Assembly (NCBI GenBank): GCA_903848955.1
Contig: CAINHS010000089.1
Span: forward strand, 1 to 64,000
Length of the DNA stretch: 64,000 nucleotides
Origin: an uncultured beta proteobacterium
Lineage (GTDB): Bacteria > Pseudomonadota > Gammaproteobacteria > Burkholderiales > Rhodocyclaceae
Direction: 5' to 3'
Within the stretch, counting starts at the first letter, position 1. The number at the start of each line of letters is the position of its first letter. Below the pieces are notes generated by a model. It saw only the letters and a program-made list of their open reading frames with translations, was not told the DNA's origin and did no database searches. The position numbers and the translations under genes are program-made. This document shows, piece after piece, positions 18,974 to 37,806 of the stretch.

Positions 18974-20137
18974 TTACATCTTGCATTCGGCGACGTAGGC
19001 GTCGGGATGATCCTTGAAGATCGTCGCCACGGTCTTGTTCACCAGCCGGCCCTTGTCGTCCTTCACCACCTGACGCAGGTAGTAGTTCTGGATCGGGAAG
19101 TGGTTGCGGTTGAACTTGAAGGCGCCGCGCACCGACTTGAAATTGGCCGCCTCGAGTGCCTTGCGCAGCGCCGCCTTGTCCTCGACGTTGCCCTTTACAT
19201 CGCGCACCGCGGCGTCGATCAGCATGGCCGCGTCATAGCCCTGCGAGGCAAACTCGTTGGGCAGGCGGTTGTACTTTTTCTCGAAGTCGGCGACGAACTT
19301 CTTGTTGGCGGCGTTGTCGAGGTCGATGTTCCAGTGCGCGGTATTGAGCGCGCCCAGGGTCGGCTCGCCGACGGCGGCCAGGGTGTCCTGGTCGAAAGAC
19401 CAGCCGGTGCCGACGAGCGGGAATTCCTTGCCGAGTCCGGCCTGGTTGTACTGCTTGATGAAATTCACGCCCATGCCCCCGGGCAGGAAGAAGAACACGG
19501 CGTCGGGCTTGGCCGCGCGCAGCTGCGACAACTCGACGGCATAGTCGAGCTGGCCGAGCTTGGTGTAGACCTCGCCGGCAAAGCCGCCCTTGTAGTAGCG
19601 CTTGAAGCCGTTCACCACGTCCTTGCCGCCCGGATAGTTCGGCGCGATGACGAAGACGTTCTTGTAGCCCTTGTCGCTCATGTGGCGGCCGGAGGCTTCG
19701 GAATAGCTGTCGCTGACCCAGGACACGGCGTAGAACAGCGGATTGCATTTTTCGCCGGCGAGGTCGGATGGGCCGGTGTTGGCGCTGATCAGCGGGATCT
19801 GGGCCTGGAATACCGGCTGCTCGACGGCCTGCATGATGTTCTGGAAGACGACGCCGGTGACGAAATCGACCTTGTCGCGCTTGGTCAGCTTGTCGGCCAG
19901 CTGCTTTGCGACGTCGGGCTTCTGCTGGTCGTCTTCGATGATGACGTCCACCGGCAGGCCGCCGATTTTGCCGCCGCTGTGCTCAAGCGCCAGGTTGAAG
20001 CCGTCGCGAATCGCCGCGCCGAGGACGCCGCCGGGTCCGGAGAGGGTGCTGATAAAGCCGATCTTGATCTTGTCGGCCGCCTGCGCGGGAAGTGATACGG
20101 CAGCGAACAGGGCCAGCCACAGCAGTTTCTTCTTCAT
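18974..20137 (-). CDS. ABC transporter substrate-binding protein (Peripla_BP_6)
   Basis: This 387-residue periplasmic protein has a clear signal peptide (MKKKLLWLALFAAVSLPAQA). The mature protein starts DKIKIGFISTLSGPGGVLG and contains the NYPGGKDVVNGFKRYYKG segment seen in aromatic-acid-binding members of the Leu/Ile/Val family. The ATG at 20137 overlaps the stop of the UbiD-like gene by four bases, so it is translationally coupled to a cytoplasmic decarboxylase, which ties the imported ligand to the pathway. It is directly upstream of livH and is probably the main receptor for this transporter. Confidence 0.87.
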   Translation of the reverse strand: MKKKLLWLALFAAVSLPAQAADKIKIGFISTLSGPGGVLGAAIRDGFNLALEHSGGKIGGLPVDVIIEDDQQKPDVAKQLADKLTKRDKVDFVTGVVFQNIMQAVEQPVFQAQIPLISANTGPSDLAGEKCNPLFYAVSWVSDSYSEASGRHMSDKGYKNVFVIAPNYPGGKDVVNGFKRYYKGGFAGEVYTKLGQLDYAVELSQLRAAKPDAVFFFLPGGMGVNFIKQYNQAGLGKEFPLVGTGWSFDQDTLAAVGEPTLGALNTAHWNIDLDNAANKKFVADFEKKYNRLPNEFASQGYDAAMLIDAAVRDVKGNVEDKAALRKALEAANFKSVRGAFKFNRNHFPIQNYYLRQVVKDDKGRLVNKTVATIFKDHPDAYVAECKM

Positions 20138-21639
20138 GTTTCTTCCTTGGATTGTTGACGACGTTTGCGGTTCGGGGTCGCCGCCGGTTTGCGGGCAGCG
20201 GCCGGTTTCAGCCTGTTTTCGACTATCTCGTAGTTTGCCAGATCGATGGCGCGAAACTTGACTCGTTCGAAACGCTGCGGCGGGGCACCGAAGGGCACCA
20301 GGGCATCCATGCCCATTTTGGTCACCGTACCGCCCTTGCCATCGGCGTCCGGCTTGACCATGGGGTTGAGGATGTGGCCGCTCTGGCCGGGCAGCAGCAC
20401 CAGATCGTGATCGGGATCGAAGCGGGTGGTGACGGCCCAATCGACATCGACCGCATCGCGCAGGTCGACGTCGGTGTCGACCACGATGACACGCTGCAGG
20501 GGAGGGAAGGCGCGCAAGGTCGCGCGGATCACGTCCTTGCCGATGTCGCGGCGGGTGTTGCGCACCTGCACCACGGCCTCGTAGAAGCCGCAGCCGCCGT
20601 GCGGCAGATAGACGGCGACGAGTTCGGGTATCGCGCGCTTGACGGCATGCGAGATGGCGGCTTCGGCGGTGAAGCCGACCGCGTTCCAGACTTCCATGCC
20701 GGAGAGCACGGTATGGAACACCGGTTCGGCGCGACGGGTGATGGCCTTGACCTTCATCACCCAGCGCTTTTCGCGTCCGGCGTAGTAGCCGGTGACCTCG
20801 GCGAAGGGGCCTTCCGCTTCGCGCACGCCGGGAAGGATTTCGGCTTCGATGACGAATTGCGCCGCGGCATAGGCGGGGACATCGACGGTCTGGCCGCGGA
20901 CGAAGTCGATGCCGCGGCCGACCAGGTGGTGGGCGACGGCATTCTTGTTGTCGCCGAGGCGCGGCAGGCTCGAGACGATCCAGGGCGCGAGGCCGACGCC
21001 GTTGTTGATGGTGACCGGCAGCGCTTCGCCGCGCCGCTCCATGATGTCGACATACTCGCCGAGATGGCGGCCGGGATCGATGAGGAAGCTCAGCCTGTCC
21101 TTGCGCGTCACCATCATGCGGTGAATCGAGATGTTGGGCGCGCCGGTGAGCGGATTGCGGGCGACCACCAGCGACGAATCGAGGAAGGCGCCGCCATCCT
21201 TCAGCGCATGCAGCGGGATCGGCAGCCGCGACAAGTCGCATTTGTCCTCGATCACTTCATTGCACGGGCCGCGCTGCAGCAGGCGACCGGGCAGTGCGGC
21301 GGGGTCCTTCTGCCAGGCGGCGACCGCGGCAGCGATGGCGAAGGGCACCTGCTCCCTGGGCATGCCGAACAGTTCGCCGACGATGCCGCGGTTCCACAGC
21401 AGGCCGGCGAGGACGGGCCAGGCACTGCCCTTGACGCGTTCGAAGAGGACGCACTTGCCGCCCTCCAGGCGCTTGGCCACGGCGGCGAGCTCAAAGCGGG
21501 GATCGACTTCGGTCTTGACCCGCAGCAGGTTTCCGGTCTTGTCGAGGAAGTCGATGCAGGCGCCGAGGTCTACCAGACGCCTGGCCTGGGCCGCTGTCGG
21601 CGTGGCCGCACCCGGCGTGGTTTTCCCGATCCGACCCAT
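20134..21639 (-). CDS. UbiD family (de)carboxylase
   Basis: This 501-residue UbiD-fold protein needs prenylated FMN. It shows the conserved Glu-containing block EAEGPFAEVTGYYAG (about 275-289), ISIHRMM (about 170), and VVDTDVDLRDAVDVDWAVTTRFDPD near 400 (key residues Asp and Arg). Length matches the family (about 480-520). UbiD enzymes reversibly decarboxylate aromatic, heteroaromatic or alpha,beta-unsaturated acids. ATG 21639 is preceded by GGGGAGGAAA. The gene lies between the CoA-transferase and the transporter receptor and overlaps the latter. The known indoleacetate pathway as I recall it needs no UbiD enzyme, so its substrate is unclear. UbiX for its cofactor is at 50086. Confidence 0.85.
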   Translation of the reverse strand: MGRIGKTTPGAATPTAAQARRLVDLGACIDFLDKTGNLLRVKTEVDPRFELAAVAKRLEGGKCVLFERVKGSAWPVLAGLLWNRGIVGELFGMPREQVPFAIAAAVAAWQKDPAALPGRLLQRGPCNEVIEDKCDLSRLPIPLHALKDGGAFLDSSLVVARNPLTGAPNISIHRMMVTRKDRLSFLIDPGRHLGEYVDIMERRGEALPVTINNGVGLAPWIVSSLPRLGDNKNAVAHHLVGRGIDFVRGQTVDVPAYAAAQFVIEAEILPGVREAEGPFAEVTGYYAGREKRWVMKVKAITRRAEPVFHTVLSGMEVWNAVGFTAEAAISHAVKRAIPELVAVYLPHGGCGFYEAVVQVRNTRRDIGKDVIRATLRAFPPLQRVIVVDTDVDLRDAVDVDWAVTTRFDPDHDLVLLPGQSGHILNPMVKPDADGKGGTVTKMGMDALVPFGAPPQRFERVKFRAIDLANYEIVENRLKPAAARKPAATPNRKRRQQSKEET

Positions 21640-21677
21640 GCTTGCGTTTCCTCCCCCGGATATGTTCTGTGCCGGAC

Positions 21678-22871
21678 TCAGCCGGCGACGATGCCGTCGC
21701 GGCGCAGGGCCTCGAACTGCTCCCGCGTGTAACCGCATTCTCCCAGAACCGCCGCCGAATTTTCGCCGTATTTGGCAGGAAAAGTCAGTTCCGTGGCCTG
21801 ATCCGGGACGTCCACGGCCATCGGCTGCATGCGCACCGCTTTGCCGGCGGGCGTTCGGGTGGTGGTGAGGCGGCTGGCGACGGCCGGCAGTTCGCGCACG
21901 GCGGGGATATCGTGGATCGGCGCGTGGGGGATGGTTGCCTTGCGGAAGTCTGCGGCGATCTCGGCGGTGGTGTGCTGGCGGGTCACGGCCGCCATGTCGC
22001 GATGGATGGCCTCGCGCTCGCTGCTGCGGCCTTCATTGCTGGCGCGCAGGGCACTGGCCACCGCGGCAAAGTAGGGGATCTCCGTCAGGCGCCGCCACTG
22101 CACGTCGCTGCCGATGGCCATGTAGATGAAGCCGTCGGCGGTGGGGTAGACGTTGGTGGGAATGAACTTGCGATGCTCGTTGCCGCAGCGGGTGATTTCC
22201 GCCGGATCGCAGTTGAAGTCGAGCAGGGGCAGGGTGGTGATCAGCCAGGAGGCGGCCGCCTGCAGCATGGAGACGTCGATGCGGCTGCCCTTGCCGGTTT
22301 CGGCGCGCTGCAGCAGCGCCATCATCACGTTGGCATAGACCTCGTCGCCGGCCTTGAGGTCGATCAGCGGCACGCCGGACAGCGTCGGCGGGCCGTCGGC
22401 GGGGCCGGTCAGCTCCATGTAGCCGGCCATGGCCTGGATCACCGGGTCGTAGCCCGGCGCGTCCGGGTATTCCGGCCCCATGGCGGAGATGCCGGCCCAG
22501 ATCAGGTCGGGCTTGGCGGCCGAGAGACTTTCGTAATCGATGCCCAGCTGCTTGTAGCGCTTGGGTACGGTGTTGCAGCAGAAGACGTCGACGTCGAGGT
22601 CGACGATCATTTTGCGCAGCAACTCCTGGCCCCTCGGTTCCTTGAGGTTGATGGCGACGGCTTCCTTGCCGACGTTGGGCGCGATGAAGTAGCTGCGGCG
22701 GTCGTCATCGACCACCTTGCCGCCGATATAGCGGTTCGGATCGCCCGGCAGGCCGTCGCCGCTCGGCGTCGATTCGATGCGGATGACGCGCCAGCCGAGC
22801 TGGGCGAAACGCAGCGTCGCATACGGCAGCGACAGCGCCTGTTCCATCGATAGTACGGTGCGTTTTTTCAT
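21678..22871 (-). CDS. iaaL: Class III CoA-transferase (phenylsuccinyl-CoA transferase, IaaL-like)
   Basis: This 397-residue member of the formyl-CoA transferase/CaiB/BaiF family has catalytic Asp171 in [10 protein letters not shown], matching Asp169 of formyl-CoA transferase. The N-terminus ([20 protein letters not shown]) is the CoA-binding region. In the Aromatoleum aromaticum indoleacetate pathway, IaaL moves CoA onto (2-aminophenyl)succinate. The cluster content supports that role here; succinyl-CoA or an aryl-CoA from the ligase step would be the donor. It starts 12 bases after the molybdenum-subunit stop (AAAGG ribosome site). It could instead activate another dicarboxylate, so the symbol is by context. 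Confidence 0.72.
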
Positions 22872-22883
22872 TAAGACCTTTCA

Positions 22884-25294
22884 TCACTCAGCTTTCCATG
22901 GCTTCCAGTACCGCTTCGGCGTCTGGCCGTGGAGGGCGCGGTAGACTTTTTCCGGAGTGAAGGGCAGCTCGAACATTCTTACGCCGGTGGCATTGCGGAT
23001 GGCGTTGGCGGCGGCGGCGGCGATGCAGATCGACGGCGCTTCGCCGACCCCCTTGGCACCCTGCGGCCCTTCGCCGTCCATCGATTCGATGAAGGCGATG
23101 TCCATCTCGGGAATCTCCGGCGCCGTCACCAGCTTGTAGTCGCGGAAGTTGGGGTTCCTCATGACGCCGTCTACGATCATCAGGTCTTCGGTGAGCGCGT
23201 AGCCCTGGCCCATGACCATGCCGCCTTCGATCTGGCCTTCGATGCCGAGCCGGTTCAGCACCCGGCCGACGTCATGCGCGCCGGTGATTTTGGTCATCCT
23301 GACCATGCCGGTGTCGGTGTCGACTTCGACTTCCACCACCTGGCTGGCCCAGGCATAGGCGGCGGAGACATCGCCCTTGAAGTCCTTGCCCTGATGCACG
23401 CTGGGCGGTTCGTAGTAGAAGGTGGTCATCACCAGTTCGGCCTTGTCCTGGAAGTGCAGGTTGCGCAGCAGCTTGGAGAGTTCGACCACGACTTCGCCGC
23501 TGGCGGCCTTGATGACGAAGCCGCCGCGCAGGTCGAGATCGGCTTCGGCGGCGTCGTATTTCTTCGCCGCCACGGCGAGGATCTTGGCCTTGGCCTTTTT
23601 CGCCGCGCCGATCGCCGAGTTGCCGGCGATGAAGGTGGTGCGGCTGGCATGCACGCCGACGTCCCAGGGAGTGATGGCGGTGTCGTTGTTGACCACGGTT
23701 ATCGCCGAAATCGGCAGGCCGAGTTCTTCGCAGACCAGTTGCGACAGCACGGTCTCCGAGCCCTGGCCGATTTCCGAGGCGCCGGTGATCAGCGTGACGT
23801 TGGCGAAGTCGTCCATCTTGAGAATGGTGCCGCAGCCGTCCGAGGGATAAATCTTGGCGCCGCCGCCGACATGCAGCATCGAGGCCATGCCGATGCCATG
23901 CTTGATGTTGCCCGGCTTGCCGCGGTTGGCCTCGTTCTCCTTGAACTTGCGCGAGTAATCGCTGCGCTGCGCCGCGGTATTGATGCAGTCCTTGAAGCCG
24001 CAGCTCTTGAACACCATGCCCTGGCCGGTGGTCTCGCCGGAATCCTGGGCATTCTTGAGGCGGAATTCGAGCGAATCCATGCCGATCGCTTCGGCCATCA
24101 TGTCCATGTGCTGCTCGATGGCGAAGGTGGCCTGCAGGTTGCCGTAGCCGCGGAAGGAGCCGGCGTAGGGGTTGTTGGTGTACACGGCCGCGGTGTGATA
24201 GTCGCAATGCGGCACGCGATAGAGCGAGGAGAAGGTCTGCATCATGACGAAGGGCGTGGTCGCCCCCCACGAGGTGTAGGCGCCGTTGTCGTGCAGCGTA
24301 TGCACCTGACGGAAGGTCAGGGTGCCGTCCTTTTTGCATCCCGAGCGCAAGGTCAGCAGCACCGGCTGTCGCGTCGGCGAGGCGAGGAACTCTTCCTCGC
24401 GGGTGAACAGCATCTTCACCGGCCGCTTGGCGGCGCGGGCGAGGAACAGGCAGATGATCTCGAAGGGGTAGATGTCGAGCTTGGAGCCGAAGCCGCCGCC
24501 GATGGGCGGCTGGATGATGCGGATGCGCGCCGGGTCCATGTTCAGGTATTCGGCGAACTCGCGCTTGTGCAGGAAGGGCACCTGGGTGTTCGAGTACATC
24601 AGCAGATTGCCGGAGGCATCGAACTCGGCGATCATGCCGGAGACGCCCATGCAGCAGTGGGTGACGTAGTGCAGGCGGAAGGTATCCTCGATCACCACGT
24701 CGGATTCGGCTTCGCCCTTGACCACGTCGCCATGGGCATAGTCGAAACGCATGGCGATGTTGTCGGCCTTGCCGCGGTGGGCGATGGAGGTGCCCTGCTT
24801 CAGGTGCAGATGGGTGCCGTCGGCGCCGTGCGGTTCGGGGTGGATCAGCGCCGCGCCGGGCTTGATGGCGTCTTCCGGATCGGAGATCACCGGCAGGTCC
24901 TCATACACCACCTTGATCAGCTTCAGCGCCGCTTCGGCGATTTCCTCGGATTCGGCCGCCACGGCGGCGATCTCGTCACGCTGGCTTCTGACGCGGCCGA
25001 CTTTCAGCGGGAAGTGATCGCGGGCGACGCCGATCGGGCGCTGGTCGGGAATGTCGGCGGCGGTGATGACCACGTGCACGCCGGGCAGGGCCCGGGCGGC
25101 CGAGGTGTCGATCGACTTGATCAGGGCATGAATGCGCCCGGAGCGCAGAATCTTGCCGTAGAGCTGGCCGGAGAGATTGATGTCGTGGATGTAGCGTGTC
25201 CGTCCGCTGGCCTTTTCCGGCGCATCCATCTTGGGGATGCGCTTGCCGATCAGCGAGTCGGGTTCGATGATCCTGGTCTTCTTTTCGCTAACGC

Positions 25295-25298
<4 letters not shown>
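22884..25298 (-). CDS. Molybdenum hydroxylase large subunit (xanthine dehydrogenase family; proposed indoleacetate C2-hydroxylating)
   Basis: This 804-residue aldehyde oxidase/xanthine dehydrogenase-type subunit binds the molybdopterin cytosine dinucleotide cofactor. Motifs include PPIGGGFGSKLDIYPFE (about 265), SFRGYGNLQATFAIEQH (about 375), GASEIGQGSETVLSQL and GVGEAP with the predicted catalytic Glu753. With the two genes upstream it forms an alpha2beta2gamma2 enzyme. In the indoleacetate pathway a molybdenum enzyme adds oxygen from water at indole C2 to give an oxindole. Start ATG 25298 overlaps the [2Fe-2S] gene stop by four bases. It is distinct from the hcrA copy at 40424. Substrate is inferred from context. 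Confidence 0.85.
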
Positions 25299-25760
<462 letters not shown>

Positions 25761-25777
<17 letters not shown>

Positions 25778-26627
25778 GGGTCAGCATCCTTCTGGTGATG
25801 TTATGGATCATTTCCTTGCGATACCAGGCGGTGGCGCGCACGTCGTCGATCGGTTCGACCTCGTCGCGGGCGATGGCGGCGACCCTGTCGATGATGGCGG
25901 CATCGAGCTTCTGCCCCTCGAGCGCCTGTTCCGCCCGCGCCGCCCGCACCGGCGTCGGCGCCACGGCGCCGAAGGCGACGCGGACGTTGGTCAAGACGCC
26001 CTCGCGCAGCGTGCCGCCGATGCCGATGGATATCGTCGAGATGTCCAGCGCCGGCCGCGTGCCGAGCTTGTGGAAATGCGCCACGTGGCCTTCGCCCGGC
26101 AAGGGGATGCGGACGCAGGTCAGCAGTTCGCAGAGGGAGCGGCGGGTCTTTCCCGGTCCGACGAAAAAGGTTGCCAGCGGCATGCTGTGGCGGTAGAGCT
26201 TGGCTTCCGGCATCGACGCCAGTTCGACCCTGGCATCGAGCAGCAGCAGGGGAATCAGGGTGTCGCCGGCGGGCGAGGCGTTGCAGATGTTGCCCCCCAG
26301 CGTGGCGGCATTGCGGATCTGGTCGCTGGCGAAATGGTTGCAGGCCTCGACCAGCACCGGCAGATGCTGGCGTACCAGCGGGTGCTCCATGATCTCGGTA
26401 ATCGTCGCCAGCGTGCCGATGCGTATTTCCCTGCCTTCGAGCGTGATGCCGGACAGTTGCGGGATGTGGCGTATGTTCATCAGCGTGCGCTTGATCCTGA
26501 TCCTGCCGGCCTGGCTTTGCGGCGTCAGATCGGTACCGCCGGCGAGTATGGTGACGTCGCCGTCCTTGAGGCACTCGACCGCCTGGTCGAGGCTGGTCGG
26601 TGCGAAGTAGTGTTTCAGTTCAGTCAT
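25761..26627 (-). CDS. Molybdenum hydroxylase FAD subunit
   Basis: This 288-residue CoxM/XdhB-type FAD-binding subunit has the ILAGGTDLTPQ motif near residue 32 and TLGGNICNASPAGDTLIPLL near 105-124. It lacks the four-Cys loop seen in the second FAD subunit at 39444, so it is an ordinary family member and not a 4-hydroxybenzoyl-CoA reductase beta subunit. ATG 26627 has AAGGAA upstream; an ATG 18 bases earlier is in frame but lacks a site. A palindromic repeat (26641-26734) separates it from the mutase gene. Confidence 0.87.
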
Positions 26628-26640
26628 GTCGGATTCCTTC

Positions 26641-26734
26641 ACCACAGAGACACAGAGGCGCAGAGAGAAGCAGACAGGCGAGAACCGAAGGGGCAGACGC
26701 AGGCCCTTCTCCGTGTCTCCGTGTCTCTGTGGTG
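26641..26734. repeat. Type 1 palindromic repeat, copy 1
   Basis: Arms of about 25 bases rich in CACAGAG on one side and CTCTGTG on the other (ACCACAGAGACACAGAGGCG at the left edge) flank a GC-rich centre. The transcript would fold into a long hairpin. Three further copies lie at 28378, 30131 and 34212, all in gaps of the same cluster. Confidence 0.85.
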
Positions 26735-28361: not shown

Positions 28362-28377
28362 GGTAAAAACCTTTTTG

Positions 28378-28453
28378 GCCACAGAGCACACAGAGCACAC
28401 AGAGAAAGAACGTCGCCAAGGTTTTCCTCTGTGATCTCTGTGTCCTCTGTGGC
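28378..28453. repeat. Type 1 palindromic repeat, copy 2
   Basis: GCCACAGAGCACACAGAGCA on the left pairs with CTCTGTGTCCTCTGTGGC on the right around an AT-richer centre. It lies between the small and large mutase subunit genes and extends the apparent reading frame of the large subunit. Confidence 0.85.
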
Positions 28454-28875: not shown

Positions 28876-28879
28876 GACG

Positions 28880-28985
28880 TCGCCTCCGCCGGGCCGTCCC
28901 AAGGAAGCGACATGCGCGCACATGGAGCCGCGCAGCGGCGAACCGGTGTCACCCCCTTGCTCGGGAAGGGGGATGGGGGGAATGT
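28880..28985. repeat. Type 2 intergenic repeat, copy 1 (plus orientation)
   Basis: This GC-rich unit contains ATGGAGCCGCG, AGCGGCGAAC, GTCACCCCCTT and TCGGGAAGGGGG in order. A second copy in reverse orientation lies at 31926-32031. It contains CCCCCTT/AAGGGGG arms that can pair. No gene function is assigned. Confidence 0.75.
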
Positions 28986-28987
28986 GA

Positions 28988-30121: not shown

Positions 30122-30130
30122 AAAAACCTT

Positions 30131-30223
30131 TCACCACAGAGGCACAGAGACACAGCGGAAAACAAAAAGCAGAGCTGATTCTTCGAATTTGCATTTCTCT
30201 GTGCCTCGGTGTCTCTGTGGTGA
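30131..30223. repeat. Type 1 palindromic repeat, copy 3
   Basis: TCACCACAGAGGCACAGAGA on the left pairs with CTCTGTGCCTCGGTGTCTCT plus GTGGTGA on the right, with an AT-rich loop. It lies between the hydantoinase-B-like gene and the acyl-CoA dehydrogenase gene. Confidence 0.87.
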
Positions 30224-30242
30224 TGTATTTGGGTTGGTTTGT

Positions 30243-31919
30243 TCAACCGGCCTCATAGCCGTAGTCGCGCTTCGCCGCTTCGGGCGTGATCACGCCGTTC
30301 CTGATTTCTTCGGCGAGCAGCTTGCGGTCGCGTTTCTTCGGGTCGCCGTAGCCGCCGCCGCCGCTGGCGACCTGGTGGTAGGTGGTGCCTCTGGGCACGC
30401 CGGTGATCAGGTCCTTGTTCTTCGGCACCACGGTCTGGCCGTCCGGGTAGTGCAGGCGGATGAAGTTGAGGCCGCCCTGGCCGCCGCCGAAAAGGCCGAA
30501 GGCCGGTTCGAAGTCGCCGTCGCCGAAGGTCACCAGTTGCGTGTCGTCGGAGCCGATGGTGAAGATGGTTTCGACGCCGAGACCGCCGCGCCATTCGCCG
30601 GCGCCGGCGGAATCGGTGAGCAGCTCGTGCTTGATCAGCGTGTGCGGCGTCTGCTGCTCGAACATCTCGTAGTCCTGGTCGAGCACGCCGCCCGAGGCGT
30701 CGATCATGCCGATGTGGTCGTAGCCGTCGGTGCCGAGCATGGCGCCGGAGCCGCCCTTCAAACCCATGAAGCCGATGTCGACGTACTTCTCGTTGTTCTT
30801 CGGATCGAGGCCGGTGGTGAGCGAGGCCAGCAGGTTGTTCCAGCCGGCGGTGACGCGATCCGGCATCACTGGAGCCAGGGCGCGCTGGATGGCGTCGGCG
30901 TTGGGCGGGCAGAGGTGGTTGCCGAAGGTGGTGGCCTTCGGGTAGGCGGCATTGAGGATGGTGCCGCTGGGGATGACGATCTCGATCGGCTGCACCATGC
31001 CTTCGTTGTGCGGGATGTCGGGATTGACCATCTGCAGCAGGGTGAGGATGGTGGCGGAGGCGCTGGACGTGAACGTGCCATTGACGAAGCCGTTGGTCTG
31101 GGCGTCGGTCCGCGAATAGTCGAACTTGATGTGCCGGTCCTTGACCTCGATGTCCACGCGGATGGTGTATTTCGAGCCGACGAAGCGGCCGTCGTAATAG
31201 ACGTAGCCTTCGCCCGAATAGTTGCCGTTGGGAATCTTGGCGATCTCGGCTTCCATCATCTTGCGCGTGGCATCGAACAGCGCCAGCTTGTGTGCCTCGT
31301 AGCTGTCGACGCCGTACTTCTTCAGCAGTTCGACCAGGCGACGTTCGCCGACGGTACAGGCGCCCATCTCGGCCTTCATGTCGTGCTGCACGATGTCGAG
31401 CCGGACATTGGCGAAGATCAGTCCCCAGACGTCCTTGCGCAGCTTGCCGCGCTCGACCACCTTCACCGGCGGAATGCGCAGGGCTTCCTGCCAGACCTCG
31501 ACCGCGTTCGGGTTGTAGCCGCCGGCGACATTGCCGCCGATGTCGGCCTGGTGGCCCTTGACCGCCGTCCATGCCACCAGCTTGTCGTCGAAGAACACCG
31601 GCTTGAAGGCGGCGACGTCGTTGTTCTGGTTGCCCAGACTGAACACGTCGTTGTGGAAGATCACATCGCCGGGATAGATCTCGTCACCGAAGAACTCCTT
31701 GATGTACTTGCACACCGGCGCCAGCGAGAAGGCCAGGATGGGCAGGTTCTCGGTCTGCTCCAGCATGTTGCCGTCGGCGTCGTACAGCCCCGTGACATAG
31801 TCCTTGGCCTCGCACAGGATGGGCGAGCGCGTGGTCTGCTCCATCGAAATGCTCATCTCGTCGGTGATCGACTTGAAGGTCCGCGCATAGACGGATAGCA
31901 GGATCGGATCGATCTTCAT
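30243..31919 (-). CDS. Hydantoinase B/oxoprolinase-family subunit (lactam-opening enzyme, proposed)
   Basis: This 558-residue HyuB-family protein (also related to acetone and acetophenone carboxylase alpha subunits) begins MKIDPILLSVYARTFKSITD and has the HNDVFSLGNQNNDVAAF block (about 115), KGHQADIGG (about 150) and the Gly-rich GEWRGGLGVETIF and ASGGGGYGDP near the C-terminus. With the HyuA-like partner it would open the oxindole lactam ring, probably ATP-dependently, giving 2-aminophenylsuccinate. ATG 31919 has AAGGGGAG six bases upstream; ATG 31925 abuts that site. The ~65-codon upstream extension is a repeat. Confidence 0.82.
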   Translation of the reverse strand: MKIDPILLSVYARTFKSITDEMSISMEQTTRSPILCEAKDYVTGLYDADGNMLEQTENLPILAFSLAPVCKYIKEFFGDEIYPGDVIFHNDVFSLGNQNNDVAAFKPVFFDDKLVAWTAVKGHQADIGGNVAGGYNPNAVEVWQEALRIPPVKVVERGKLRKDVWGLIFANVRLDIVQHDMKAEMGACTVGERRLVELLKKYGVDSYEAHKLALFDATRKMMEAEIAKIPNGNYSGEGYVYYDGRFVGSKYTIRVDIEVKDRHIKFDYSRTDAQTNGFVNGTFTSSASATILTLLQMVNPDIPHNEGMVQPIEIVIPSGTILNAAYPKATTFGNHLCPPNADAIQRALAPVMPDRVTAGWNNLLASLTTGLDPKNNEKYVDIGFMGLKGGSGAMLGTDGYDHIGMIDASGGVLDQDYEMFEQQTPHTLIKHELLTDSAGAGEWRGGLGVETIFTIGSDDTQLVTFGDGDFEPAFGLFGGGQGGLNFIRLHYPDGQTVVPKNKDLITGVPRGTTYHQVASGGGGYGDPKKRDRKLLAEEIRNGVITPEAAKRDYGYEAG

Positions 31920-31925
31920 GGCCAT

Positions 31926-32031
31926 CTCCCCTTGCCCCCTTCCCGATGAAGGGGGTGACGGTTGTTCGCCGCTACGCGGCTCCATTTGCTTGACTGCGCC
32001 GCCCTTGGGGCGGCCCTGCGGGCGTCGCGGC
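31926..32031. repeat. Type 2 intergenic repeat, copy 2 (minus orientation)
   Basis: Reverse-strand reading gives the same order of blocks as copy 1 (ATGGAGCCGCG, AGCGGCGAAC, GTCACCCCCTT, TCGGGAAGGGGG), preceded by GGGCCGCCCCAAGG, which matches GGGCCGTCCCAAGG in copy 1. It lies between the HyuA-like and HyuB-like genes. Confidence 0.75.
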
Positions 32032-34158
32032 TCATGCCAGCGCCTCCTTGTTGTCCTTGAAGCATGATTCGGCAAGATCCTCGCGGCCCTTGCGGTAGAT
32101 GACGAAGGAGCCCAGCGCATCCACCGCGCAGTCGTAGGAGTCGCTGACGAAGATTGCCGTGGTGACCTGTTCGATCATGGCAGGTCCCGTGATACGGTTA
32201 CCGAAATGCATCTTGTGGCCGTCATAGACCGGCGTTTCCCTGAAGCTCTTGGTCTCCGGGATGTACATGCTGCGCTTGCCCTTGAGTGCCTTGGCCGCAT
32301 CGGTTCCTGCCCAGGCTTCCTTGCGGTAGGTCGGCTTGTCGGTGATGCCGATGGCCTGAACGCGGACGTTGATGATTTCCACCGGCGTCTTTTCGGCTTC
32401 CAGCGAATAGCCGTAGAGCCGGTTGTGTTCGGCATTGAAGGCAGCGGCGATGGCCACGGTGTCGCGGCTGTCGATCAGCTGGCGCGGCACGCTGAACGAC
32501 ACCTCGTGGTACTGCTTGATGTAGCGGCAGTCGAACTTGACGTCGTAGCGGCGGCGTTCTTCGGCGATGCGCTCCTCGACCAGCTGGCGGGTGCCGTCAG
32601 CCGACATCTCGTCGATCATGGCGGTCAGCCGCGGCCAGTCGATGGCCTCGAGGCGGGCAACGAAGGTGCGCACGAAGTCGTGCTTGAGTTCGCTCATCAG
32701 CATGCCGAAGGCGCACAGCACGGAGGATTCGCGTGGCACGATCTGCAGCGGGATTTCGAGTTCGCTGCAGATCAGGCAGGAGTGGATCGGGCCGGCGCCG
32801 CCGGCCGGGATGAAGGGGAATTCGCGCGGATCGAAGCCGCGCTTGATGGTGACCTCGCGCACGCCCTGGGCCATGTTGTTGCAGGCGACGCGGTACATGC
32901 CGGCGGCAGCTTCCTCGACCGTCAGGCCCATGGGCCGGGCGATGTGTTCTTCGATCGCGGTGCGCGCCGCGGCGGCGTCGAGCTTCATCTTGCCGCCGGC
33001 GAAGAAGCCGGGGTCGAGGTAGCCCAGCACGACGTTGGCATCGGTGGTGGCCGGCAGCCTGCCGCCCTTGCCGTAGCAGGCCGGTCCGGGGTCGGCACCG
33101 GCGCTTTGCGGACCCATGCGCAGCATGCCGCCTTCATCGAGCCAGCCGATCGAGCCGCCGCCGGCGCCGATGGTGTGGATGTCGAGCATGGGCAGGGCGA
33201 TCTTGTGGCGGGCGATCTCGCCGTCGTTCTTGATCATCGGGTTGTCCACCGCCACCGAGGCTTCGAAGCTGGTGCCGCCCATGTCGGTGGTGATGCACTT
33301 GTTCTGGCCGTGCAGGCGGACGTAAAACAGGCCGGCGCCCGGTCCTCCGGCGGGGCCGGAGAGCAGCGTCAGGGCAGCCTTCTGGCGCGCCAGCTGCGGC
33401 GAGATGACGCCGCCGTTGGATTGCATGATGAGCAGCAGGTTCCTGAAGCCGATGTCCTTGAGGCGGCCGACGAGCTGGTCGAGGTAGTGGTTGAGCTTCG
33501 GTCCGACATAGGAATTGAGCGCCGTGGTGCTGACGCGCTCGTAGAAGCGGATCGACGGCAGCAGGTCGGTCGATACCGAGAGGTAGGCGCCGGGCATTTC
33601 CTTGCTAACCAGTTCGGCGGCGGCCTGTTCGTGGGCCGGGTTGGCGAAGGAGTTCATGAAGCAGATCGACACCGCCTGCACGCCCTCCTGCTTGAACAGC
33701 TCGATGGCCTGCCGGATCTGCGCCAGGTCGAGCGGCGCGGTCTCGGCACCATTGCGGTCGAGGCGGCCGCCGATGCCGGCACGCAGGTAGCGCGGCACCA
33801 GGGGTTTGACGTTGGTGTAGCGGTTGTTGTACTGCTCCTCGCGGATGCCGCGGCGCATTTCCAGGGCGTCGCGCACGCCGGCGGTGGTCAGCAGCCCGCA
33901 CTTGGCGCCGGTGCCGGTCAAGGTGGCGTTGGTGGTGACCGTGGTGCCATGCACGATGGTGTCGATGGTCGGCGCGAAGGCTTGCAGCGTCAGGGCCGGG
34001 CTCATGCTGGCGGCAATGTCGGCGAGGCCGTTGACTACCGCGATGGACGGATCCGCCGGCGTCGACAGGGTTTTGAAAATCGCCGGTTCGGCGTCATCGC
34101 GGGTGACGACGAAATCGGTAAAGGTGCCGCCGACGTCGATGCCGATTTTTAGCGCCAT
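32032..34158 (-). CDS. Hydantoinase A/oxoprolinase-family subunit (lactam-opening enzyme, proposed)
   Basis: This 708-residue HyuA-family protein has the ASKHA-type ATP-binding start IGIDVGGTFTDFVVTRDD, VHGTTVTTNATL (about 68), MQSNGGVIS and LLSGPAGGPGAG (about 270-300), and DMGGTSFEASV (about 320). It is the ATP-using partner of the HyuB-like protein. In oxoprolinase-like enzymes ATP phosphorylates the lactam oxygen before hydrolysis; in acetone/acetophenone carboxylases it drives carboxylation. The surrounding genes favour 2-oxindole-3-acetate hydrolysis. Start MALKIG at 34158 follows GGAGAA; 27 upstream codons of the open frame run into repeat sequence. Confidence 0.83.
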   Translation of the reverse strand: MALKIGIDVGGTFTDFVVTRDDAEPAIFKTLSTPADPSIAVVNGLADIAASMSPALTLQAFAPTIDTIVHGTTVTTNATLTGTGAKCGLLTTAGVRDALEMRRGIREEQYNNRYTNVKPLVPRYLRAGIGGRLDRNGAETAPLDLAQIRQAIELFKQEGVQAVSICFMNSFANPAHEQAAAELVSKEMPGAYLSVSTDLLPSIRFYERVSTTALNSYVGPKLNHYLDQLVGRLKDIGFRNLLLIMQSNGGVISPQLARQKAALTLLSGPAGGPGAGLFYVRLHGQNKCITTDMGGTSFEASVAVDNPMIKNDGEIARHKIALPMLDIHTIGAGGGSIGWLDEGGMLRMGPQSAGADPGPACYGKGGRLPATTDANVVLGYLDPGFFAGGKMKLDAAAARTAIEEHIARPMGLTVEEAAAGMYRVACNNMAQGVREVTIKRGFDPREFPFIPAGGAGPIHSCLICSELEIPLQIVPRESSVLCAFGMLMSELKHDFVRTFVARLEAIDWPRLTAMIDEMSADGTRQLVEERIAEERRRYDVKFDCRYIKQYHEVSFSVPRQLIDSRDTVAIAAAFNAEHNRLYGYSLEAEKTPVEIINVRVQAIGITDKPTYRKEAWAGTDAAKALKGKRSMYIPETKSFRETPVYDGHKMHFGNRITGPAMIEQVTTAIFVSDSYDCAVDALGSFVIYRKGREDLAESCFKDNKEALA

Positions 34159-34211
34159 AAGGTGTTCTCCATCATTGCAGGAATGTGATGCATCCTGAAA
34201 AACCAGGTTGA

Positions 34212-34290
34212 ACCACAGAGGCACACAGACACAGAGCAAAACGACAGACCCGGCTTTCGCAGTTCTCTGTGCCTCTGTGTCTTTGTGGTG
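34212..34290. repeat. Type 1 palindromic repeat, copy 4
   Basis: ACCACAGAGGCACACAGACA on the left pairs with CTCTGTGCCTCTGTGTCTTT and GTGGT on the right around a short centre. It separates the acyl-CoA ligase gene from the HyuA-like gene. Confidence 0.87.
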
Positions 34291-34302
34291 AAGAATTGAG
34301 GT

Positions 34303-35829
34303 TCATTGGCTATAGCCGGTGCGCTCGATCATCTGGCGCACCTCTTCCTTGCGAATCTTGCCCAGGGCGGTTTTCGGCAACTGGCTGACCAGTACCACCT
34401 CCTTGGGAAACTTGTAGCGGGCGATGCGGCCCTCCAGCAGTTGCAGCACCTGCGCACCGGTAATCGCGCCGTCGGTGCGTGGCACCACAACGGCGACGAC
34501 GATTTCGCCCCAGCGCTCGTCGGCGCGCCCGATCACCGACGCTTCGGCGATATCGGGACATTCCACCAACAGGTTTTCGATCTCGGCCGGATAGATGTTT
34601 TCGCCGCCGGAGATGATCATGTCCTTGCTGCGGCCGACCACGGTGAGGTAGCCCTCAGGGTCGAGATAGCCCATGTCGCCGCTGTGGTACCAGCCGTCGT
34701 CGAGCACTGCGCCGGTCGCCTGCGGTGCCTTCCAGTAGCCGGCCATGACATTGCGGCCCTTGACCAGGATTTCGCCGGCCTGCCCCGGTGCCAGGTCGGC
34801 GCCGTCGCGGCCGACGATGCGCAACCGGCAATGCGCGGCGGCACGGCCGGTCGAGCCGGCCTTGTGGCGCGATTCGCCGGGCTTGAGGTAGGCGGCGATC
34901 GGGCAGGTTTCGGTGGCGCCATAGACCTGCGGCATCGGCACGCCGCGGGCGTGCACGGCATCGATCAGGTGGATGGGCACGATCGACGAACCGATGCTCA
35001 TCATGCGCAGACTGGAGAGGTCGGTGGCGGCCCAGCGCGGGTGGGCCATCATCATGTCGAGTACCGCCGGCACCACCAGCATCAGCGTGATCCGCTCGCG
35101 CTCGACGGCGTCCAGCGCGGCTTCGGGATCGAAGCGCGGGTGCAGCACCAGCGTGCAGCCGGCGCGCAGTGCCGGCGTGGTCTGGATGTTGAGGCCGCCG
35201 ACATGAAACAGCGGCAGCACCGTCAGCACCCGGTCGTCGGGCGACAGGGAATGCATGTCGGAACTGTTGTCGGCGTTGCAGTCGATGGCGCCCTGGGTCA
35301 GCAGCACGCCCTTGGGTTTGCCGGTCGAGCCGGAGGTGTAGCAGATCAGCAGCGGCGTTTCCTCGCCGACTCCGGCATCGCGCGGCGCCGGACCGTCGCC
35401 CCGGCCGCAAAACGCAGCCCAGGAGATCCAGCCCTCGCCGGCAGTGCCGAAGCTGATCAGGGTCAGCGGCTGCAGCGCGCCGCGCAAGGCCTCGGTCTGG
35501 GCGACATGCTGCGGCTCGACGAAGAGCAGGGCGGGCGGGCAGTCCTGCAGCATTTGCAGGTGTTCGGCGCCGGCCAGGCGCCAGTTGAGCGGCATGAACA
35601 GCGCGCCGAGGCGGGCGCAGGCGAACAGCAGCGCCAGCATTTCCGGGCTGTTGCAGCCGAGGTAAGCGACGCAGTCGCCACGCTTGACGCCGGATGCGGC
35701 GATGGCCGCCGCCAGCCGCTCGATCAGCGCCGCCAGTTCCGCATAGGAAACATCGCGTCCGCAAAAGCGAATGGCGGTCTTGCCGGGGGTGAGCCCGGCG
35801 TGACGCTCAATCCAGTCCGATATGTTCAT
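34303..35829 (-). CDS. AMP-forming acyl/aryl-CoA ligase
   Basis: This 508-residue ANL-superfamily enzyme has the P-loop YTSGSTGKPKG (about 165-175), YGATET (about 303-308), HSGDMGYLDPEGYLTVVGR (about 386) and the C-terminal catalytic Lys in LGKIRKEEV (about 495). It forms an acyl-adenylate and then the CoA thioester. Length and motifs resemble medium/long-chain and aryl-CoA ligases of the FadD/MenE type. In the indoleacetate pathway a CoA ligase (IaaB) activates the acid or primes the CoA-transferase cycle; this is the only ligase in region A. Specificity cannot be read from the sequence. Confidence 0.85.
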   Translation of the reverse strand: MNISDWIERHAGLTPGKTAIRFCGRDVSYAELAALIERLAAAIAASGVKRGDCVAYLGCNSPEMLALLFACARLGALFMPLNWRLAGAEHLQMLQDCPPALLFVEPQHVAQTEALRGALQPLTLISFGTAGEGWISWAAFCGRGDGPAPRDAGVGEETPLLICYTSGSTGKPKGVLLTQGAIDCNADNSSDMHSLSPDDRVLTVLPLFHVGGLNIQTTPALRAGCTLVLHPRFDPEAALDAVERERITLMLVVPAVLDMMMAHPRWAATDLSSLRMMSIGSSIVPIHLIDAVHARGVPMPQVYGATETCPIAAYLKPGESRHKAGSTGRAAAHCRLRIVGRDGADLAPGQAGEILVKGRNVMAGYWKAPQATGAVLDDGWYHSGDMGYLDPEGYLTVVGRSKDMIISGGENIYPAEIENLLVECPDIAEASVIGRADERWGEIVVAVVVPRTDGAITGAQVLQLLEGRIARYKFPKEVVLVSQLPKTALGKIRKEEVRQMIERTGYSQ

Positions 35830-35848
35830 GCCCTGGCGTTGCCGGTTG

Positions 35849-37057
35849 CTAGTTGGCGTCGCACACTTCCAGCACCACCGCCATGGCGGTGTCGCCTGCG
35901 GCGCAGCCGGTGAACAGGCCGAAGCCGCCGCCCTTCAGGGCCAGTTCCTCGATCAGTTCGATGATGGAGCGGGTGCCCATCGGCGCCTGGGGATGCCCCC
36001 ACACCAGCGAACAGCCATAGTTGTTCATCGACTGCAGATCGGCGCCGGTCTGCTTGGCAAAGAACAGATCGTTCACCGCGAAGGGGTTGTGCGTCTTGAT
36101 CGCGGTCATCTGGGCGACGCTGCGGCCGGCCTGATTCAATGCGCGTTGCGCCGCCGGCAGCATGGCCTCGGGCATATGCGCCAGTGCTACGCGGGCGAGG
36201 CCGAAACCGTGCAGGCGCACGGCAATTGCCGGGTTGCTGGAAAGTTCCCGCGCCTTGTCGCGGGTGGTGACCAGGATGGCCGCATTGCCGTCCGCCGGGT
36301 GGGTCTGGCCGCCGAAGGTGACCGTGCCGCCGGGCATCACCGGTTTCAGTTTCGCCAGACCTTCGGCCAGCGATTGCGATACGCCTTCGTCGCCGCTCAT
36401 GGTGCTCGCCGTCTTCTTGAAGTTGGCGGCGGGGACCTCGAAGGGCAGGGTCATGAAACGCCGGAGGAAGGCCGAGTCGTTCTGCAGCGACTGGCGGTAC
36501 TGTTCCTCGCGCCGCAAAACAAGTTCATGCTGCTCGGCCGTGCCGATGCCGTATTTGACCGCAACGTTTTCGGCGGTCTGCACCATGGCGTGGCCGCCGA
36601 GGGGATCGCAGCCGAAGTTTTCCGTCACCCAGTCCTCGGCCGCGCCGGTGCCGCCGGGTCCGCGCGGGTTGGGGTAGTAGATGTGCGGCCCGTTCGAGGT
36701 GCGGTCGCAATTGATCACCAGCGCCGTGGTCGCCATGCCGACCTCGATTTCCTGGGTGGCGGCGAGCAGCGTGCGGACGCCGGTGGCGCAGGCCTGCATC
36801 ATCGTCGGGCCGCCGGCCTGGCTGGCGCCGATCAGGCCGGTGAGCCAGGGCAGGCCGTAGAAGGAATGTTTTTGCGGAACCGAGAAACCGAGGACGCCGT
36901 AATCGAAGCCGGCGGGGTCGATCTTGCGTTTGGCCAATTCCAGACGCGCCACATGCGCGGCAAACTCGATGCTGTGCAGGTTGGCAAAGCTTCCCTGCCA
37001 GCGGGCGAAGGGGGTGCTCCAGTAGGCGCCGTAGGGAATTTCCGCTTTGAAACTCAT
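35849..37057 (-). CDS. Thiolase (acetyl-CoA acyltransferase-like)
   Basis: This 402-residue thiolase has nucleophile Cys90 in MMQACATGV, KTHNPFAVND (about 323), YGCSLVWGHPQAPMGTR with the conserved His (about 348-364), and the second Cys in FTGCAAGD (about 383). It would cleave a 3-oxoacyl-CoA with CoA, giving an aryl-CoA such as 2-aminobenzoyl-CoA and acetyl-CoA as the last step of region A. The variation from GHPxGxSG to GHPQAPMG suggests a non-standard substrate. It lies 19 bases before the ligase gene and 41 bases after the GntR gene. Confidence 0.88.
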   Translation of the reverse strand: MSFKAEIPYGAYWSTPFARWQGSFANLHSIEFAAHVARLELAKRKIDPAGFDYGVLGFSVPQKHSFYGLPWLTGLIGASQAGGPTMMQACATGVRTLLAATQEIEVGMATTALVINCDRTSNGPHIYYPNPRGPGGTGAAEDWVTENFGCDPLGGHAMVQTAENVAVKYGIGTAEQHELVLRREEQYRQSLQNDSAFLRRFMTLPFEVPAANFKKTASTMSGDEGVSQSLAEGLAKLKPVMPGGTVTFGGQTHPADGNAAILVTTRDKARELSSNPAIAVRLHGFGLARVALAHMPEAMLPAAQRALNQAGRSVAQMTAIKTHNPFAVNDLFFAKQTGADLQSMNNYGCSLVWGHPQAPMGTRSIIELIEELALKGGGFGLFTGCAAGDTAMAVVLEVCDAN

Positions 37058-37098
37058 ATCCGTTCTCCGTTATGCGTGATGCGCAAAAAATGCTTTGC

Positions 37099-37806
37099 CT
37101 ATTGGGCGGAGGCGAGTCTTTCCGCCTCTTTTTCCTTGTCGATTTCGGCAATGGCCTCGATCAGGAAGTGCTTGGCGGCCTCAAGATGCAGGTGCATCGC
37201 GGTCGCTGCGGCTTGCGCGTCGCGCTTCTTGAAAGCGCCGTGAATGTTCTTCATGCCGGTCAGGGCGGCCTTCCGGGCGGCCGGGTCGCCCAGGGTCAGG
37301 ACCCGCAGAAAGCGGACATGGCCGACGTAAAGGTCGAGCAGCTTCGACAGCCGCCGGTTGGGGATCAGCGCGCGCCAGGCATTGTGGAAGCGGGTGTTGG
37401 CTTCGAGGAAGGCGCGGAAGTCGCCGCCTTTCTCGGCGGCGACGGCATCATCGATCGCCGCCACCATGCTGGCGAGGTCGGCGGCACTGCCGACCTGGGC
37501 CACCGCGCTGCTGGCCGCGGCCGGCTCGAGCAGAAAGCGCAGCTGGTAAATTTCATCGATGTCGCTGTCGGTCAGTTCGGGGACGACGAAGCCGCGTCCC
37601 TCGACGGCGATCATGCCTTCGCTTTCGAGCCGTGCCAGCGCTTCGCGCACAGGGGTGCGCGAGACGCCGAGTTGCGCTGCCAGACTGACCTCCTGCAGAC
37701 GCTCGCCGGGGCGGATCTGGTGGCTGCCGATGTTGTCGCGCAACTGGTGATATACCCGGTCGGCGAGGCCGGCCGGCCTGTCAAGTGGCTTGATTGAGGT
37801 GTTCAT
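37099..37806 (-). CDS. GntR family regulator, FCD (FadR-like) subfamily
   Basis: This 235-residue protein has an N-terminal winged helix (ADRVYHQLRDNI, LQEVSLAAQLGVSRTPVREAL about 42-62, then MIAVEGRGFVV) and a C-terminal all-helical FCD ligand domain with Asp, His-type metal ligands (RFHNAWRAL near 145 and HLHLEAAKHF near 210). It is the first gene of the minus-strand cluster and probably represses it, with release by an aromatic acid or CoA thioester. Its start faces the divergent meaB-like gene across 95 bases that contain a GTATAC-centred site. Confidence 0.87.
   Translation of the reverse strand: MNTSIKPLDRPAGLADRVYHQLRDNIGSHQIRPGERLQEVSLAAQLGVSRTPVREALARLESEGMIAVEGRGFVVPELTDSDIDEIYQLRFLLEPAAASSAVAQVGSAADLASMVAAIDDAVAAEKGGDFRAFLEANTRFHNAWRALIPNRRLSKLLDLYVGHVRFLRVLTLGDPAARKAALTGMKNIHGAFKKRDAQAAATAMHLHLEAAKHFLIEAIAEIDKEKEAERLASAQ

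What the first reader, a model, noticed from the sequence alone, without database searches (positions are those of the whole stretch)
20134..37806. Candidate anaerobic indoleacetate (auxin) degradation cluster
The genes match step by step the published indoleacetate pathway of Aromatoleum/Azoarcus: Mo hydroxylase, HyuA/HyuB-type lactam hydrolase, class III CoA-transferase, B12 mutase split in two subunits, decarboxylating acyl-CoA dehydrogenase, thiolase, ligase, transporter and repressor. The hydratase and hydroxyacyl-CoA dehydrogenase are not in the window, so they must be shared with another pathway or be encoded elsewhere.
Basis: partly seen in the sequence, partly recalled or inferred. 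Interest (0 to 1): 0.75.

Follow-up and report, generated by a model that had tools for sequence, protein, structure and literature searches.

The report
Auxin-degradation gene cluster with added decarboxylase
This bacterium carries the same gene cluster that Aromatoleum uses to break down the plant hormone auxin without oxygen, with one extra enzyme and its own transporter inserted that may let it also use a related indole acid.

Summary
The cluster is real and is an iaa (indoleacetate) locus. Its eleven core genes (thiolase, ligase, HyuA/B lactamase, IaaF-type dehydrogenase, split B12 mutase, three-subunit Mo hydroxylase, class III CoA-transferase) occur in the same order and strand in 43 of 45 fetched loci of 21 kb or more, including Aromatoleum evansii KB740, in which the pathway was described (core identity 62-91%). 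The dehydrogenase has the GGG motif reported for IaaF. The hydratase and hydroxyacyl-CoA dehydrogenase are indeed absent from the window: the best candidate is one fused 670-residue protein on another contig, present in 21 of 22 IaaF-positive and 5 of 177 IaaF-negative sampled family genomes. Its best solved relative is indole-3-carboxylate decarboxylase (40% identical), including the indole-binding Asp169. This unit was seen in the iaa cluster of three genomes and apart from it in three others. "Anaerobic" is not shown for this organism: no NarG or NapA above cut-off and no class I benzoyl-CoA reductase subunit were found. The core is a new member of a known pathway. The UbiD unit is a variant, and its function is inferred.

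The parts
37099..37806 (-). GntR/FCD-family regulator, candidate repressor
   Evidence: Pfam GntR + FCD; 46-48% to the regulator at the same place in six Aromatoleum loci
35849..37057 (-). divergent thiolase
   Evidence: Pfam Thiolase_N/C; below NCBIfam thiolase cut-offs shown; 78-80% to Aromatoleum loci
34303..35829 (-). acyl-CoA ligase, IaaB-like by position
   Evidence: 60-65% to Aromatoleum loci, same position
32032..34239 (-). HyuA-type lactamase subunit (likely start 34158)
   Evidence: Pfam Hydantoinase_A; 84-85% to Aromatoleum loci; likely start
30243..32120 (-). HyuB-type lactamase subunit (ORF as listed; true start probably near 31925)
   Evidence: Pfam Hydantoinase_B; 83-92% to Aromatoleum loci; candidate starts
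28988..30121 (-). IaaF-type decarboxylating acyl-CoA dehydrogenase with GGG motif
   Evidence: 83-85% to Aromatoleum loci
28474..29010 (-). B12-dependent mutase, small (cobalamin-binding) subunit
   Evidence: TIGR00640 above cut-off; 83-87% to Aromatoleum loci
26772..28400 (-). B12-dependent mutase, large subunit (likely start 28361)
   Evidence: TIGR00641 above cut-off; 85-86% to Aromatoleum loci
25761..26645 (-). Mo hydroxylase FAD subunit
   Evidence: Pfam FAD_binding_5 + CO_deh_flav_C; 65-68% to Aromatoleum loci
25295..25777 (-). Mo hydroxylase FeS subunit
   Evidence: ORF, not scanned by profile; 76-82% to the gene at the same place in Aromatoleum loci; placed between FAD and Mo subunits
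22884..25298 (-). Mo hydroxylase Mo-binding subunit (type 1 of two types found)
   Evidence: Pfam MoCoBD_1/2, Ald_Xan_dh_C; 81-84% to Aromatoleum loci; types
21678..22871 (-). class III CoA-transferase, IaaL-like
   Evidence: Pfam CoA_transf_3; 77-80% to Aromatoleum loci
20134..21738 (-). UbiD-family (de)carboxylase, candidate indole-3-carboxylate decarboxylase (likely start 21639)
   Evidence: Pfam UbiD domains; best solved relative AnInD 7p9q; Asp169 conserved
18974..20137 (-). Liv-type substrate-binding protein 1; its ATG overlaps the UbiD stop codon (ATGA)
   Evidence: 79-91% to the gene next to UbiD in five other genomes
18025..18945 (-). LivH-type permease
   Evidence: unit
17081..18061 (-). 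LivM-type permease
   Evidence: unit
16338..17084 (-). LivG-type ATPase
   Evidence: named from its sequence and place, not scanned by profile; unit
15631..16341 (-). LivF-type ATPase
   Evidence: named from its sequence and place, not scanned by profile; unit
14406..15566 (-). substrate-binding protein 2, IaaM-like by position (directly after the CoA-transferase in many relatives)
   Evidence: 59-60% to Aromatoleum loci
37902..38972 (+). MeaB-type mutase chaperone GTPase, divergent
   Evidence: TIGR00750 above cut-off
10676..14152 (-). fused indolepyruvate:ferredoxin oxidoreductase (IorAB), possible feeder from tryptophan
   Evidence: NF009588 above cut-off; adjacent in 12 of 80 loci, many of them cut short

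Best explanation
The interval is an iaa locus (the confidence given is for this part). Indoleacetate is activated to its CoA ester, hydroxylated at ring C2 by the Mo enzyme (this step recalled and inferred), and the lactam ring is opened by HyuA/B. The CoA-transferase moves CoA between the two carboxyl groups, the B12 mutase makes (2-aminobenzyl)malonyl-CoA, and the GGG-type dehydrogenase oxidises and decarboxylates it to 2-aminocinnamoyl-CoA. A fused hydratase/dehydrogenase encoded on another contig and the local thiolase would finish to 2-aminobenzoyl-CoA. Genes, order and orthology are shown here; the reactions come from published work on Aromatoleum or from recall. Inserted between CoA-transferase and IaaM-like protein is a coupled UbiD plus Liv transporter unit, which I infer, at about even odds, imports and decarboxylates indole-3-carboxylate or a close indole acid.
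For: Core order and identity: 43 of 45 loci of 21 kb or more complete and colinear, out of 80 fetched. A. evansii KB740, named in print for this pathway, is among them (L065, L066). GGG motif in the window and in all 20 loci checked, one of which is the window itself. The published iaaF primers of A. aromaticum fall exactly at the ORF ends in the six Aromatoleum loci tested, with 0-5 mismatches. The fused hydratase/dehydrogenase follows IaaF across 199 genomes, 21 of 22 against 5 of 177, and lies within 49 kb of it in 18 of those 21. UbiD: AnInD is the best of 40 solved relatives at E 1.7e-94; Asp169 and the E-R-E triad are conserved in the window protein and six orthologs; the UbiD stop overlaps the transporter start; the UbiD-SBP1-LivHMGF unit recurs intact in five other genomes.
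Against: No enzyme was assayed. This genome shows no NarG or NapA above cut-off and no class I benzoyl-CoA reductase match, although 28 of 31 genomes of the genus give one, so anaerobic use of the product is unproven. The fused enzyme is not in the cluster here, and 24 weaker matches to its halves exist in the genome, so its assignment rests on co-occurrence. UbiD is no part of the core pathway: 18 of 22 IaaF-positive family genomes lack a close ortholog. Forty per cent identity and one key residue do not fix a UbiD substrate. AnInD needs oxidative maturation and was only weakly active without oxygen, which sits badly with an anaerobic role. Three of the six other genomes with a UbiD ortholog have no IaaF match, and the neighbours of the separate units give no hint of indole metabolism.
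Confidence: 0.9

Rival explanations
1. The core cluster degrades a different lactam or N-heterocycle (for example a caprolactam-like or pyrrolidone-like compound) and only resembles the iaa locus.
For: HyuA/B hit the caprolactamase models best among NCBIfam entries and the Mo enzyme hits 4-hydroxybenzoyl-CoA reductase and xanthine dehydrogenase models.
Against: All these hits are far below curated cut-offs. The whole ordered set matches A. evansii KB740. Among the subclasses listed in PMC8360864 GGG belongs to IaaF alone.
Confidence: 0.04
2. The UbiD unit is an unrelated passenger that handles another aromatic acid (furan, phenol or benzoate type) and merely sits in the operon.
For: The unit lies apart from iaa genes in three genomes; 18 of 22 IaaF-positive genomes lack it; UbiD substrates are hard to predict; AnInD needs oxidative maturation; the window also holds a phenylphosphate carboxylase-type UbiD.
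Against: Closest solved relative is indole-3-carboxylate decarboxylase with the indole-contacting Asp conserved; ATGA coupling to its transporter and a 38-base gap behind the CoA-transferase gene; in the iaa cluster of two other genomes; enriched with IaaF, 4 of 22 against 3 of 177, p=0.003, relatedness not controlled and three 42-44% homologs left out of the count.
Confidence: 0.4
3. The locus works aerobically or micro-aerobically in this organism, feeding 2-aminobenzoyl-CoA to an oxygen-dependent route.
For: No NarG or NapA above cut-off; no class I benzoyl-CoA reductase match; IaaF of A. aromaticum accepts only oxygen in vitro; AnInD needs oxidative maturation.
Against: 4-Hydroxybenzoyl-CoA reductase and a phenylphosphate carboxylase subunit are encoded in the same window and belong to anaerobic phenol metabolism (recalled); the genome is a draft of 151 contigs; other acceptors, class II reductases and oxygen-dependent routes were not searched.
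Confidence: 0.3

Closest known systems
iaa locus of Aromatoleum evansii KB740 and A. aromaticum EbN1 (KB740 compared here; EbN1 only through its iaaF primers)
   Same: All 11 core genes in the same order and strand; 62-91% identity to KB740 for the core; GGG motif; IaaM-like binding protein after the CoA-transferase
   Different: Regulator only 46% identical to KB740; fused hydratase/dehydrogenase unlinked here but beside the cluster in five of six Aromatoleum loci, cut by the locus edge; UbiD-SBP1-LivHMGF inserted; MeaB and IorAB adjacent
Indole-3-carboxylate decarboxylase AnInD of Arthrobacter nicotianae (PDB 7p9q)
   Same: 39-40% identity; Asp169, Arg155, Glu261, Glu266 conserved
   Different: Coupled to a Liv-type transporter and placed in an iaa operon; substrate untested
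Furan dicarboxylate decarboxylase HmfF (PDB 6h6x, 6h6v)
   Same: Second-best solved relatives, E 6e-77 and 8e-77
   Different: Leu where AnInD has Asp169 (alignment)

Membership tests
iaa indoleacetate pathway | IaaF-type dehydrogenase with GGG in place of YEG | tested here: met
   LIGGGTSEM in the window protein; 20 of 20 loci, the window's own included; criterion from PMC8360864 Discussion
iaa indoleacetate pathway | Split B12 mutase plus class III CoA-transferase plus HyuA/B lactamase plus ligase in one gene cluster | tested here: met
iaa indoleacetate pathway | Orthology and gene order with A. evansii KB740 | tested here: met
   L065, L066: 11 of 11 core genes, colinear, 62-91% identity
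iaa indoleacetate pathway | Hydratase and hydroxyacyl-CoA dehydrogenase available in the genome | tested here: met
   Fused protein at G000:C95:63401-65410, unlinked; activity on this substrate untested
iaa indoleacetate pathway | Two regulators as in A. aromaticum (iaaQ, iaaR) | tested here: inconclusive
   One GntR-type regulator found, 46-48% to Aromatoleum; a second was not sought
iaa indoleacetate pathway | Anaerobic dearomatisation and nitrate respiration available (class I benzoyl-CoA reductase; Nar or Nap) | tested here: not met
   No match to TIGR02259 in the own genome against 28 of 31 in the genus, all below cut-off; NarG and NapA below cut-off. This bears on the word anaerobic for this organism, not on cluster identity
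iaa indoleacetate pathway | Conversion of indoleacetate to 2-aminobenzoyl-CoA | not testable with these tools
   needs cultures or enzymes
AnInD-type indole-3-carboxylate decarboxylase | UbiD E-R-E triad and indole-contacting Asp169 | tested here: met
   Window protein and six orthologs; 0 of 30 other UbiDs fetched (the higher-ranked of 51 matches, many of one clade) have Asp; role of Asp169 from PMC8988006 passages
AnInD-type indole-3-carboxylate decarboxylase | Strict activity on indole-3-carboxylate | not testable with these tools
   needs assay

The most novel reading that the evidence does not exclude
Some Rhodocyclaceae have widened the auxin-degradation operon with a coupled importer and prFMN-dependent decarboxylase for indole-3-carboxylate, a plant defence metabolite. 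One operon would then remove both auxin and its shorter side-chain relative; the indole formed could be taken on by the same Mo hydroxylase and lactamase. The organism may do this without Nar, Nap or a class I benzoyl-CoA reductase.
Probability: 0.3. Interest if true: 0.6.

Novelty: new variant of a known kind. Interest (0 to 1): 0.4.

Why it matters
It places the published auxin pathway, with its unusual decarboxylating dehydrogenase and split mutase, in Sulfuritalea-like Rhodocyclaceae and in Burkholderiales records. It names a strong candidate for the two missing beta-oxidation steps. If the UbiD assignment holds, one operon would handle auxin and indole-3-carboxylate together. I found no paper on this: the searches indoleacetate + UbiD and Sulfuritalea + indoleacetate gave none in the held open-licence library, which lacks most subscription journals.

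Tried and rejected
Rejected: caprolactamase, 4-hydroxybenzoyl-CoA reductase, xanthine dehydrogenase, methylmalonyl-CoA mutase and acryloyl-CoA reductase as identities, because the hits are below curated cut-offs. Two 4-hydroxybenzoyl-CoA reductase subunits proper are at 39444-43138, above cut-off.

Rejected: the ORF 19007-20095 (+) as a gene. It is antisense to SBP1, has no NCBIfam hit and an odd codon-position GC pattern.

Led nowhere: neighbours of the separate UbiD units (diguanylate cyclase, two-component genes, ParA-type ATPase, QRPTase, EamA transporter, redoxin) gave no substrate hint. A search of 399 order-level genomes for UbiD orthologs at E<=1e-130 found only the own genome. Three more distant UbiDs (39-43%) that also carry the Asp lie next to a TRAP transporter (L167), next to a ligase, acyl-CoA dehydrogenase and amidohydrolase (L166), or near a contig end (L168). 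A first attempt at the UbiD background read several loci in the wrong frame; it was redone with blast-chosen frames and only one search is counted for the background. In the IaaF x UbiD count I kept the seven matches of 69% or more and dropped three of 42-44% (G010 and G151 with IaaF, G052 without).

Not run: structure prediction, metagenome or viral scans, searches for class II benzoyl-CoA reductase, Box or 2-aminobenzoyl-CoA monooxygenase genes.
Full report
Observation. On the - strand the window holds, from 37806 down to 21678, a GntR/FCD regulator, a thiolase, an acyl-CoA ligase, HyuA, HyuB, an acyl-CoA dehydrogenase, a B12 mutase small and large subunit, the FAD, FeS and Mo subunits of a xanthine-dehydrogenase-type Mo hydroxylase, and a class III CoA-transferase.

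Identity of the core. A scan of genome contigs with an IaaF alignment confirmed 154 relatives and kept the best 80 as loci with record titles. In 43 of the 45 loci of 21 kb or more all eleven core genes are found at E<=1e-20, and all 43 are on one strand in the window's order. The two others lack one (L070, thiolase) or two (L096, CoA-transferase and ligase) genes. The other 35 loci are shorter and were not counted. The loci include Aromatoleum evansii KB740 (L065, L066), named with A. aromaticum EbN1 as an organism in which the pathway was identified and whose locus is called iaa (PMC9613470, passages). Identity to the KB740 loci runs from 62% (ligase) to 91% (HyuB) for the core; the regulator is 46% and the IaaM-like binding protein 60% identical.

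The diagnostic residue test. PMC8360864 (the first part of the text and the first part of the Discussion; passages) reports that all IaaF-type enzymes have GGG where most acyl-CoA dehydrogenases have YEG or a variant. The window protein has LIGGGTSEM, and the motif is in 20 of 20 loci from the same family, the window's own locus being one. The iaaF primers printed in that paper, minus their tails, fall exactly at the first and last codons in the six Aromatoleum loci tested, with 0-5 mismatches; the window's own gene has four in each. PMC5214803 (passages) states that predicted 2-oxoindoleacetyl-CoA lactamases form their own cluster in the hydantoinase branch, which fits HyuA/B here; that tree was not rebuilt.

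The missing steps. In relatives such as L044, L047 and L059 a fused 3-hydroxyacyl-CoA dehydrogenase/enoyl-CoA hydratase of about 680 residues follows the CoA-transferase gene; 25 of the 80 loci show all or part of it, among them five of six Aromatoleum loci, where it starts at the locus edge, divergent from the regulator. The own genome has one 670-residue copy, at C95:63401-65410, near NiFe-hydrogenase-type genes, and no match on the window's contig; 24 weaker matches to one half or the other exist elsewhere. Over the same 199 family genomes IaaF (E<=1e-100) is in 22 and the fused protein (E<=1e-120) in 26; they co-occur in 21. The one IaaF genome without it is G004 (84% complete), and 5 of 177 IaaF-negative genomes have it (Fisher p about 1e-22, relatedness not controlled). 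From the tables, both are on one contig within 49 kb in 18 of the 21, within 25 kb in 17; they are on different contigs in G000, G017 and G181.

The UbiD unit. Between CoA-transferase and the IaaM-like protein the window has UbiD, a substrate-binding protein and LivHMGF. The likely UbiD start (21639) is 38 bases behind the CoA-transferase stop, and its stop codon overlaps the next start as ATGA. The same unit is in the iaa cluster of G006 and G119, there behind the fused hydratase/dehydrogenase, and lies apart from iaa genes in G017 (which has IaaF on another contig), G071 and G183; G114 has a UbiD ortholog on a 7.8-kb contig without the transporter. Of the 80 loci only L044 and L059 show UbiD, and their contig lengths equal those of the G006 and G119 contigs, so they are probably the same records. 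Those loci reach at most 10 kb past IaaF and many are shorter, so the whole-genome count is the better one: close orthologs (69-76%) are in 7 of 199 family genomes, the own one included, four of the 22 with IaaF and three of the 177 without (p=0.003). In 399 order-level genomes only the own one passed E 1e-130.

What UbiD may do. Its best match among 40 solved sequences is AnInD, indole-3-carboxylate decarboxylase (320 bits, E 1.7e-94), ahead of HmfF (263 bits) and AroY (164 bits). Identity to AnInD is 39-40%. PMC8988006 (passages) reports that Asp169 contacts the indole nitrogen in a docked model, that its mutants are severely affected, and that of the compounds tested the enzyme accepts only indole-3-carboxylate. 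Asp169, Arg155, Glu261 and Glu266 are kept in the window protein and its six orthologs; three 39-43% homologs also have the Asp. Of 30 other UbiDs from related genomes none has it: 29 carry another residue and one has a gap. These 30 were the higher-ranked of 51 matches, about twenty of them canonical UbiD by their shared sequence, so that background is narrow. HmfF has Leu and AroY Ala at this place in the alignments. A UbiX-type flavoprotein, the source of prFMN (recalled), is encoded in the window at 50167-50676. Against it stands that AnInD needs oxidative maturation. I infer an indole-3-carboxylate importer and decarboxylase, at about even odds. Whether the indole formed is then hydroxylated and opened by the same enzymes is speculation.

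Anaerobic or not. The window also encodes two 4-hydroxybenzoyl-CoA reductase subunits and a phenylphosphate carboxylase beta subunit, with two PEP-synthase-like proteins that I take for phenylphosphate synthase (the last from recall). But the genome (99.97% complete, 151 contigs) has no NarG or NapA above cut-off and no match to the class I benzoyl-CoA reductase A model. Of 31 genus genomes 28 have a match, all below the curated cut-off, mostly as a pair of roughly 310- and 280-residue frames, which fits the smaller Azoarcus-type subunits (recalled). The own genome and two others have none; among the 13 good genomes 11 have one. Class II reductase and oxygen-dependent routes were not searched. 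The label anaerobic therefore describes the published pathway, not this organism, and the proposed growth test with nitrate could fail for reasons unrelated to the cluster.

Judgement. Core: a new member of a known pathway, about 0.9. UbiD unit: a variant feature with a testable but unproven function. Sources not seen: the 2012 paper on the pathway (not held) and the 2016 one (not looked up). Names of the individual Iaa enzymes are from PMC8360864; the Mo hydroxylase step is recalled and inferred.

Noticed in passing
L037, L044, L045, L051, L053, L070-L073, L082, L084, L087, L088, L091, L092, L094, L095 against window 22884-26645: The Mo hydroxylase of otherwise similar iaa clusters comes in two discrete types: 48 loci like the window and 17 of another type, of 65 with a hit. 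On the 42 and 13 full-length sequences that could be aligned (plus the window), within-type identity is 73-98% and 86-96%, between 53-58%. L037 is 92-96% identical in four neighbouring genes but 54% here, which suggests in-place replacement.
   Followed up: partly
L065 and L066: Aromatoleum evansii KB740 has two complete iaa core clusters on different contigs.
   Followed up: no
window 7043-10585 and 10676-14152: Two indolepyruvate oxidoreductase-type genes lie next to the cluster: a fused IorAB (above cut-off) and an IOR-alpha-like domain fused to a GltD-like domain (both below cut-off). IorAB is seen in 12 of 80 loci, many cut short. A route from tryptophan via indolepyruvate to indoleacetyl-CoA is possible.
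   Followed up: partly
window 37902-38972: A MeaB-type mutase chaperone is divergent to the cluster; seen in 14 of 80 loci.
   Followed up: no
window 39444-57581: 4-Hydroxybenzoyl-CoA reductase subunits, a PaaK-like ligase (below cut-off), a UbiX-type flavoprotein and a phenylphosphate carboxylase beta subunit in the same window, yet no class I benzoyl-CoA reductase match in the genome.
   Followed up: partly
L166 (G010:C1:202000-218000): An AnInD-like UbiD with the Asp (41% to the window's) follows a CoA ligase, acyl-CoA dehydrogenase and amidohydrolase, with a 72% homologue of the IaaM-like binding protein nearby; possibly another indole-acid cluster.
   Followed up: partly
G000:C16:16886-18244: A Mo-dependent oxidoreductase-like frame with one in-frame TGA in its weak match to NapA; could be a selenoprotein or a broken gene.
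   Followed up: no
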